Assembly: GCA_905214235.1 (NCBI GenBank)
Contig: CAJMLF010000018.1
Location: forward strand, 1 to 48,446
DNA from: an uncultured bacterium
Lineage (GTDB): Bacteria; Bacillota; Bacilli; Lactobacillales; Lactobacillaceae
Direction of reading: 5' to 3'
DNA: 48,446 nt
Shown piece by piece: positions 19,132-35,285 of this stretch (its first letter is position 1; each line of letters starts with the position of its first letter). Made by a program: the position numbers and the translations under genes. The notes beneath the pieces were generated by a model. The model ran no database searches. It saw only the letters and a list, made by a program, of their open reading frames with translations, and had not been told where the DNA came from.

Positions 19132-19175
19132 AATGGCCCCGGGTATTTTGGAGATTCAAGATATCCGGGGCCATT
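19132..19175. terminator. Terminator after yacL
   Basis: AATGGCCCCGG pairs with CCGGGGCCATT across an imperfect, AT-rich inner stem, followed on the plus strand by ATTATTATG. The long GC stem suggests termination though the T-tract is weak. Confidence 0.65.
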
Positions 19176-19186
19176 ATTATGATTTA

Positions 19187-19345
19187 AAACAAAAAAAGAG
19201 ATAGCTTGGGAATGCTATCTCGTTAGGGAGTATATGATAACCTTGGGGGAGATTATCATAAGTAATTATTTTTTCGTTACTATTGGGAGGAGTAATTGAA
19301 AAATAATAGGTTTCATTGATGTAGAAAGCTATTAACTTTCTACGC
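19187..19345 (-). ncRNA. Putative structured small RNA with C-rich loops
   Basis: Read on the minus strand the region has a 5' hairpin GTAGAAAG(7)CTTTCTAC (19343-19321), a weaker mid hairpin, a hairpin TATGATAA(12)TTATCATA (19260-19233), and a final hairpin GAGATAGC(8)GCTATCTC (19221-19198) followed by TTTTTTTG, a classic terminator. Loops and linkers carry C-rich runs: CTCCTCCC (19292-19285), CTCCCCC (19251-19245), CTCCC (19230-19226) and TTCCC (19212-19208). These could pair with Shine-Dalgarno sequences. A promoter is not clear; TATATA/TATAAA at 19353-19346 is a candidate -10. No protein frame is evident. Confidence 0.45.
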
Positions 19346-19512
19346 TTTATATACTAACAATAGAATGTGAAGAAAGTATGACCAAACAGTTAAATATCTT
19401 TTAGCGGGGTTAAAAGCATTCGTTTGGCGATAACGGCCGCGTCATGAAAGCGAATGTGTTAAAATTATTGAGAAGAAATTTTAAATTAATGAACGGATGG
19501 GAGTAGGTTAAA

Positions 19513-35164: not shown

Positions 35165-35285
35165 GTTGATTAAATATGACTCTGCCTAAGACTCAGGTGG
35201 CATTAAGCCTTAATTCGTACCTGCCGAGGAAGAAATGTAAATTCCTTCTCTATGTCTGCGGTCATAGGGATTTTTTTATAAATCC
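35165..35285 (+). promoter_or_regulatory. L10 leader (autoregulatory mRNA element)
   Basis: The conserved L10-L12 binding segment CTAAGACTCAGGTGGCATTA (from 35186) with the paired CCTGCCGAGGA is present, followed by a terminator: CTCTATG (8-nt loop) CATAGGG and TTTTTTT near 35249-35279. In Firmicutes, excess L10(L12)4 binds this leader and lowers expression of the operon. Confidence 0.8.

What the first reader, a model, noticed from the sequence alone, without database searches (positions are those of the whole stretch)
19187..19345. Possible new small RNA with several C-rich, SD-complementary loops
On the minus strand a chain of hairpins ends in a perfect 8-bp stem plus seven T residues, a textbook terminator. 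The loops and linkers expose CTCCTCCC, CTCCCCC, CTCCC and TTCCC, each complementary to GGAGG-type ribosome binding sites. Repeated C-rich loops in separate hairpins recall the SD-targeting small RNAs of other Firmicutes (UCCC-motif RNAs, csRNAs), but I do not recognise this one. It sits where gltX normally lies between yacL and cysS.
Basis: partly seen in the sequence, partly recalled or inferred. Interest (0 to 1): 0.72.

Follow-up and report, generated by a model that had tools for sequence, protein, structure and literature searches.

The report
Envelope-stress small RNA of lactobacilli
A conserved short RNA gene of lactobacilli seems to be switched on by a cell-surface stress regulator and to block ribosome binding on messages for surface proteins, much as known small RNAs of Listeria and streptococci do; transcript, regulator and targets still need proof at the bench.

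Summary
Minus-strand 19345-19190 reads as an RNA of about 155 nt: four hairpins, C-rich loops and linker, 8-bp terminator with seven T. It is found in 49 of 50 genus genomes. Helices 1 and 4 covary strongly, helix 3 partly; helix 2, which carries CUCCUCCC, hardly varies. No Rfam family reaches its cut-off.

Upstream lies a conserved GTCAYA-n5-TTCACA repeat, 9 nt before an extended -10. Of 72 similar sites elsewhere in 47 genus genomes (reversed-pattern control 14), I fetched 20: they precede ltaS operons, htrA, LysM proteins, a glycosyltransferase pair or a second C-rich RNA. In two Lactiplantibacillus genomes six of six sites precede sibling C-rich RNAs. Best reading: an envelope-stress response regulator activates an RNA that blocks Shine-Dalgarno sites of surface-protein mRNAs.

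In one relative the four strongest predicted targets are secreted proteins (0 of 100 flank shuffles did this); one LysM target pairs at -19 kcal/mol or better in 14 of 20 genomes. Relatives bridge towards Rfam Ref84 and, weakly, Listeria LhrC. Transcript, regulator and targets are unproven. A new variant of a known kind.

The parts
19366..19382 (-). regulator box: direct repeat GTCATA (19382-19377), 5 nt, TTCACA (19371-19366); 11-bp period typical of OmpR-family response regulators
   Evidence: conserved in the genus alignment; a matrix from 48 promoters, the window's own included, gives 62.9 bits here and at most -8.1 elsewhere in the window
19351..19359 (-). extended -10 element TGTTAGTAT (TG 19359-19358, TAGTAT 19356-19351), 9 nt after the box; no -35 hexamer seen
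   Evidence: consensus TGnTAnTATA in 48 promoters
19190..19345 (-). small RNA of about 155 nt; start near 19345-19343 inferred from the -10, end at the T-tract
   Evidence: model R1 144.2 bits (the window is one of the sequences R1 was built from)
19321..19343 (-). hairpin 1 (5' hairpin), covarying
   Evidence: 5 of 7 aligned pairs have double changes
19265..19307 (-). hairpin 2, nearly invariant, carries CUCCUCCC complementary to GGGAGGAG ribosome binding sites
   Evidence: 9 of 11 pairs never vary; L030 lacks part of its 5' arm
19233..19260 (-). hairpin 3 with CUCCCCC
   Evidence: 3 of 10 pairs have double changes, 87.2% of cells pair
19222..19232 (-). single-stranded linker with CUCCC
19191..19221 (-). 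intrinsic terminator, 8-bp stem 19221-19198 with UUCCC in the loop, T7 tract 19197-19191
   Evidence: 9 of 9 aligned pairs have double changes

Best explanation
It is a trans-acting small RNA gene. An OmpR-family response regulator (identity unknown) binds GTCAYA-n5-TTCACA and activates a promoter that lacks a -35, as part of a cell-envelope regulon that in various species also holds ltaS, htrA and LysM proteins. The RNA is framed by a 5' hairpin and a terminator hairpin and shows several CUCC/CCCC stretches. These pair with GGGAGG-type Shine-Dalgarno sites, hairpin 2 being the main one, and stop translation of selected secreted or surface proteins (LysM protein, YSIRK adhesin, lipoprotein). 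Shown here: gene anatomy, structure, promoter box, conservation, shared box. Inferred: transcription, activation, the stress signal, SD pairing, targets.
For: Conservation and covariation. The promoter scores 60.3 bits in relative G034, the next site 3.7. Genus-wide box pattern: 116 sites in 47 genomes, 44 of them the RNA promoter, so 72 others against 14 for the reversed pattern. Of these 72 I fetched 20, mostly recurring ones: 11 precede an ltaS operon, 3 htrA, 2 a LysM protein, 2 a glycosyltransferase pair, 2 a second C-rich hairpin RNA. Lactiplantibacillus G297 and G268: 4 of 4 and 2 of 2 box sites precede RNAs with C-rich loops, judged by eye. Targets in G034: top 4 of 1788 genes all predicted secreted, 0 of 100 flank-shuffled controls reach this; the anti-SD alone shows no such preference. 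The LysM target pairs at -19 kcal/mol or better in 14 of 20 readable genomes, against 25 of 1788 genes in G034.
Against: No transcript data. Regulator not identified: G035 lacks RNA and box yet has 8 Trans_reg_C matches, its relatives 7 and 7. Of six box sites in G034, three (345654, 1495692, 1497737) have no ORF of over 100 aa after them on their strand within 1.5 kb, and the first recurs in four further genomes; 52 of the 72 sites were not fetched as such. The best pairing energy in G034 (-23.7) is no better than flank-shuffled controls (mean -24.2, 56 of 100 as low), the top-50 count of secreted proteins is reached by 11 of 100 controls, and the hairpin-3 and terminator loops alone show no top-50 enrichment. 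The secreted-protein idea was formed on seeing the list. Any C-rich loop pairs with strong SD sites. In 6 of 20 genomes the LysM gene pairs less well (-12.2 to -17.0), and five of the 14 good ones are near-identical relatives of G034. L030 (G037) lacks part of helix 2's 5' arm.
Confidence: 0.74

Rival explanations
1. Cis element: plus-strand leader or attenuator of cysS, with the hairpins read on the plus strand.
For: The plus strand also folds well (z -5.3) and the RNA is next to cysS in most Limosilactobacillus and some Paucilactobacillus loci.
Against: No Rfam leader reaches its cut-off there. In other genera no cysS was found in the 8 kb held, and in L024, L039 and L040 the RNA is 241-1047 nt from cysS. 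T-tract and promoter box are on the minus strand (48 of 50 rows fit the promoter pattern). Over the 27 pairs I count 24 G-U against 10 A-C cells, which favours the minus strand as the RNA.
Confidence: 0.04
2. The RNA binds a protein or ribosomes rather than mRNAs: its CUCCUCC stretch mimics the 16S anti-SD and titrates a factor.
For: CUCCUCC equals the anti-SD core (recalled). Several equal motifs in one RNA suit a sponge. Hairpin 2 is nearly invariant well beyond the loop.
Against: Loops outside hairpin 2 drift while staying C-rich, as expected for pairing with SD sites. LhrC, which it resembles, acts by base pairing (PMC4132741, passages seen).
Confidence: 0.1
3. It encodes a peptide: an open frame of 16 codons starts at the AUG after hairpin 1 (dual-function RNA).
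For: The frame is open in the window and runs through the conserved hairpin 2.
Against: AUGAAACC is present in 17 of 33 aligned sequences and absent in 16; no SD precedes it; the stretch shows hardly any synonymous change.
Confidence: 0.02
4. Real small RNA in the envelope regulon, but with one or two dedicated targets rather than a surface-protein set.
For: About 30 nt are nearly invariant across the genus and Paucilactobacillus, more than SD pairing needs; the LysM gene of the reuteri group matches on both sides of the SD.
Against: Several equivalent C-rich sites and multi-copy siblings in other genera suggest many targets.
Confidence: 0.2

Closest known systems
LhrC1-5 of Listeria (Rfam RF00616)
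   Same: [quoted passage not shown] driven by a two-component system on envelope stress; represses envelope proteins (PMC4132741, PMC5880928, PMC13350326: passages seen). The Loigolactobacillus relative L116 aligns to the whole LhrC model at 35.5 bits (E 0.082 over the 42,753 bases first searched; E 0.00058 when narrowed to 301 nt afterwards).
   Different: The window RNA is not listed for RF00616 up to E 10. It has an extra 5' hairpin and an extra C-rich hairpin, is single-copy in its genus, and its regulator is unknown. No genome over the LhrC cut-off was among the 398 searched, so Listeria itself was not compared.
Ref84, Enterococcus sRNA 84 (Rfam RF02846)
   Same: Same order of parts: UUAUUUUUCAUUUUACUC hairpin, UACUCC linker, terminator. 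Matches in 113 of 295 Lactobacillales genomes at E 0.1, 40 over the cut-off. Intermediates; model R1 reaches 19 of 30 such sources at E 1 or better, best 0.0011.
   Different: Window scores 20.7 and 18.2 bits, cut-off 52. The Ref84 model finds 0 of 151 Lactobacillaceae genomes at E 0.01. The 20 best-scoring Ref84 loci fetched have no TTCACA or TTCATA repeat upstream and no hairpin 3.
csRNAs of streptococci (Rfam RF02379)
   Same: Sibling RNAs with CUCC motifs driven by a response regulator that also drives htrA (PMC8186281 and PMC12826053: passages seen).
   Different: 17.2 bits against 57; the CiaR box TTTAAG-N5-TTTAAG is not the box here.
sigma-E RNAs MicA and RybB of E. coli (recalled)
   Same: Envelope-stress regulator induces a DegP/HtrA protease together with RNAs that lower synthesis of surface proteins.
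   Different: No sequence relation claimed; sigma factor and Hfq, not a response regulator.

Membership tests
LhrC (RF00616) | covariance model score at or above 110 bits | tested here: not met
   window not listed up to E 10; relatives L116 and L150 score 35.5 and 31.1 bits
LhrC (RF00616) | three CU-rich sites: loop, single-stranded stretch, terminator loop | tested here: met
LhrC (RF00616) | multicopy (five near-identical copies) | tested here: not met
   one match per genome in 46 of 47 genus genomes; 2-3 copies in some Lactiplantibacillus
LhrC (RF00616) | LisR-dependent promoter | tested here: inconclusive
   response-regulator-type box found, regulator unknown; Listeria promoters not reached
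LhrC (RF00616) | binds SD of envelope-protein mRNAs | not testable with these tools
   prediction only
Ref84 (RF02846) | model score at or above 52 bits | tested here: not met
   20.7 and 18.2 bits
Ref84 (RF02846) | order of parts: hairpin UUUUUCAUUUUACUC, linker ACUCC, terminator | tested here: met
csRNA (RF02379) | model score at or above 57 bits | tested here: not met
   17.2 bits
csRNA (RF02379) | CiaR box TTTAAG-N5-TTTAAG before the -10 | tested here: not met
   box is GTCATA-n5-TTCACA
cysS leader / T-box | Rfam leader match on the plus strand upstream of cysS | tested here: not met

The most novel reading that the evidence does not exclude
In lactobacilli it is wired to one envelope regulator that at the same time raises HtrA, lipoteichoic acid synthase and wall proteins and, through the RNA, lowers the synthesis of other secreted proteins: a Gram-positive counterpart of the sigma-E / RybB-MicA circuit.
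Probability: 0.38. Interest if true: 0.75.

Novelty: new variant of a known kind. Interest (0 to 1): 0.6.

Why it matters
If true, widely used gut and food lactobacilli have an RNA arm of the envelope-stress response, with a promoter box, a list of co-regulated genes and testable targets. No Rfam family reaches its cut-off on it and none of my ten literature searches listed a description.

Tried and rejected
Rejected: cysS leader or attenuator; peptide-coding RNA; membership of LhrC, Ref84 or csRNA by score. Weak Rfam hits ar14, RsaA and sbrA are taken as shared C-richness. The class-wide LhrC search gave 13 of 398 genomes at E 0.1 and 0 over the cut-off; I printed 9 of the 13 and took them, the best (L210, 44.7 bits) included, as chance by eye; L214, L217, L218 and L221 were not read. 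So LhrC scores of 35 bits also arise by chance in large searches, and the hit of L116 counts only because it falls on an independently found relative. Two of 67 hits of the core pattern (L098, L145) are taken as chance. No plasmid record matched. One search used a mis-set -10 and is superseded. The missing-regulator test with G035 gave no candidate; in G035 cysS directly follows an upstream ORF, read as mrnC by recall, so the intergenic stretch is gone. Model R1 finds the short siblings badly: L330 E 0.039, L331 0.18, L204 0.43; L205, L207, L209 none up to E 10. In the sibling RNAs L330 and L331 the predicted fold pairs part of CCUCCC. Alignment A2 across genera is poor on its right half and was not used for a model.

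Full report
WHAT IS THERE. The window's minus strand between yacL and cysS reads, from 19345 down to about 19190, as four hairpins ending in an 8-bp terminator and seven T. The fold has z -7.7. C-rich motifs lie in hairpins 2, 3 and 4 and in the linker. No Rfam family reaches its cut-off there; among the sub-threshold hits are Ref84 at 20.7 or 18.2 bits (cut-off 52) and csRNA at 17.2 (cut-off 57). The plus strand also folds (z -5.3), so other evidence was needed for the strand.

CONSERVATION. blastn of the region finds 49 of 50 genus genomes. A covariance model, R1, from 33 sequences (33 of 50 collected; near-duplicates and L030 left out) finds 46 of 47 genus genomes, one match each, many of them the training sequences. 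The exception, G035, has lost the intergenic stretch. L030 (G037) has the RNA but lacks part of the 5' arm of helix 2. In the 33 sequences ATTATTTTTC-n-ATTACTCCTCCC-n-ATAGTAAC is nearly invariant. The structure has 94.4% paired cells (shuffles 85.2%), 127 double-changed cells (37) and a covariation score of 0.320 (0.142); none of 500 shuffles reaches any of these, and sliding the partners drops pairing to 38-54%. Helix 4 has double changes in 9 of 9 pairs, helix 1 in 5 of 7, helix 3 in 3 of 10; helix 2 in 0 of 11, so it gives no covariation evidence.

WIDER FAMILY. A scan of a named genome collection with the core pattern gave 67 hits, 65 of them Lactobacillales, including Loigolactobacillus, [Lactobacillus] selangorensis and Trichococcus palustris (taxonomy). 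cysS lies in the 8 kb held in 39 of the 67 and is divergent in all 39; in 28 no cysS was found there, of which 2 are chance hits and some end too soon. So the RNA is not tied to cysS.

PROMOTER AND REGULON. Upstream of the RNA is TTGGTCATACTTTCTTCACATTCTATTGTTAGTAT. A matrix from 48 aligned promoters (2 of 50 rows did not fit the pattern and were left out) scores 62.9 bits here and 60.3 bits at the RNA in G034, where the next site scores 3.7. Two repeats 11 bp apart, followed at 9 nt by an extended -10 and no -35, is the anatomy of a promoter activated by an OmpR-family regulator (general knowledge). A looser pattern, drawn from the RNA promoters, gives 116 sites in 47 genomes against 14 for the reversed pattern; 44 genomes have sites, one in each being the RNA promoter, which leaves 72 (counted from its table). 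I fetched 20 of the 72, mostly those that recur. Eleven precede an 86-90 aa ORF and an ltaS-family gene (NCBIfam lipoteichoic acid synthase 796 bits, below its cut-off of 970), 3 precede HtrA (Do-family protease; Pfam domains over the cut-off, NCBIfam models not), 2 a LysM protein (one checked: LysM and NlpC/P60), 2 a glycosyltransferase pair like SdgA/SdgB/GtfA (below the NCBIfam cut-offs), and 2 a second short RNA with CCUCCC and a strong terminator. One protein of each kind was searched; the others were assigned by tblastn to it. In G034 the six sites are the RNA, a LysM gene, the ltaS operon, and three (345654, 1495692, 1497737) with no ORF of over 100 aa after them on their strand within 1.5 kb; the site at 345654 recurs in G003, G005, G037 and G038 and is unexplained. 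In Lactiplantibacillus G297 and G268 all six box sites precede RNAs with C-rich loops. In Paucilactobacillus G196 one of three sites is the RNA, one precedes a small protein gene, one lies in what looks like coding sequence.

HtrA is under CiaRH, CssRS, CroRS or LisRK in other Gram-positives (PMC12826053, passages). The box falls within what I recall of PhoP/WalR-type repeats (TTHACA-n5-TTHACA); this is a lead, not a test. G034 has seven Trans_reg_C matches; by my reading one (1278694-1279377) resembles CovR/LisR and one WalR. Which one binds the box is open.

TARGETS. In G034 I called genes crudely (1852 with an SD start; 1788 scored) and paired the hairpin-2 stretch with -45 to +25 of each start. 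The four best are all secreted by my own simple rule: a YSIRK protein with a pectate-lyase-like adhesive domain, a protein with one N-terminal membrane stretch (not searched), a DUF4767 lipoprotein and a LysM protein. With the loop core kept and the flanks shuffled, 0 of 100 controls reach 4 of 4, 5 of 10 or 7 of 20 secreted; 11 of 100 reach the top-50 count and 2 of 100 the top-100 count; the minimum energy is not special (56 of 100 as low). The anti-SD alone shows no preference for secreted proteins (p 0.97); the linker does (10 of 50), the hairpin-3 and terminator loops do not (6 and 3 of 50). The idea was formed on seeing the list. As a second look the LysM protein was searched in 47 genus genomes: 21 have it and 20 gave a readable start (chosen by SD strength); 14 of the 20 pair at -19 kcal/mol or better, as 25 of 1788 genes do in G034. 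Five of the 14 are 94-99% identical to the G034 protein. Among 13 readable versions of 70% identity or less, G001, G009, G015, G020, G026, G030, G031 and G040 keep it; G006, G007, G010, G019 and G029 do not.

RELATION TO KNOWN RNAS. Ref84 RNAs have the same order of parts without hairpin 3. The Ref84 model matches 113 of 295 Lactobacillales genomes at E 0.1 but 0 of 151 Lactobacillaceae at E 0.01. Intermediates from other families of the order score 40-47 bits for Ref84 and several carry a TTCACA or TTCATA repeat, while the 20 best Ref84 loci fetched carry none. R1 matches 19 of 30 such sources at E 1 or better, best 0.0011. The Loigolactobacillus copy aligns full length to LhrC at 35.5 bits (E 0.082 as first searched, 0.00058 after narrowing); chance hits elsewhere in 398 genomes reach 44.7 bits. 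I regard common descent with Ref84 as likely and with LhrC as plausible; C-rich composition could mimic part of it.

MECHANISM. Most likely: envelope stress, then a response regulator, then RNA made together with HtrA, LtaS and wall proteins, then pairing of CUCC stretches with SD sites and less synthesis of some secreted proteins. Steps seen in sequence: gene, promoter box, shared box, loops. Steps inferred: transcription, signal, activation, pairing, outcome.

LITERATURE. Ten searches were made; none listed a description of this RNA in lactobacilli by title or abstract start. Passages of six papers were seen. PMC8220740 and the database paper PMC12807594 appeared in listings and were not opened. 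The library holds open-licence papers only, so absence from print is not shown.

Noticed in passing
L323:387-647, L334 and others; G034 about 1893901: An 86-90 aa ORF lies between the box and ltaS in the 11 fetched loci and G034; the one searched (L323) has no Pfam or NCBIfam match.
   Followed up: partly
L330:361-452, L331:2795-2886: Second box-driven hairpin RNA with CCUCCC and AUCCCC, upstream of an ORF with a weak EbpS-like match (33.9 bits, cut-off 300).
   Followed up: partly
L178, L179, L180: Three to four near-identical tandem copies of a Ref84-like RNA in unnamed Lactobacillales genomes.
   Followed up: no
G034 345654 and like sites in G003, G005, G037, G038: Recurring box-like site with no ORF after it on its strand; unexplained.
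   Followed up: partly
L051: In G035 cysS follows another ORF directly, the intergenic region is gone and yacL lies on the far side; rearrangement or assembly fault.
   Followed up: partly
window 35167-35285 +: Ribosomal protein L10 leader, 75.7 bits; ordinary.
   Followed up: no
window 19132-19175 +: Very stable 20-pair terminator-like hairpin after yacL.
   Followed up: no
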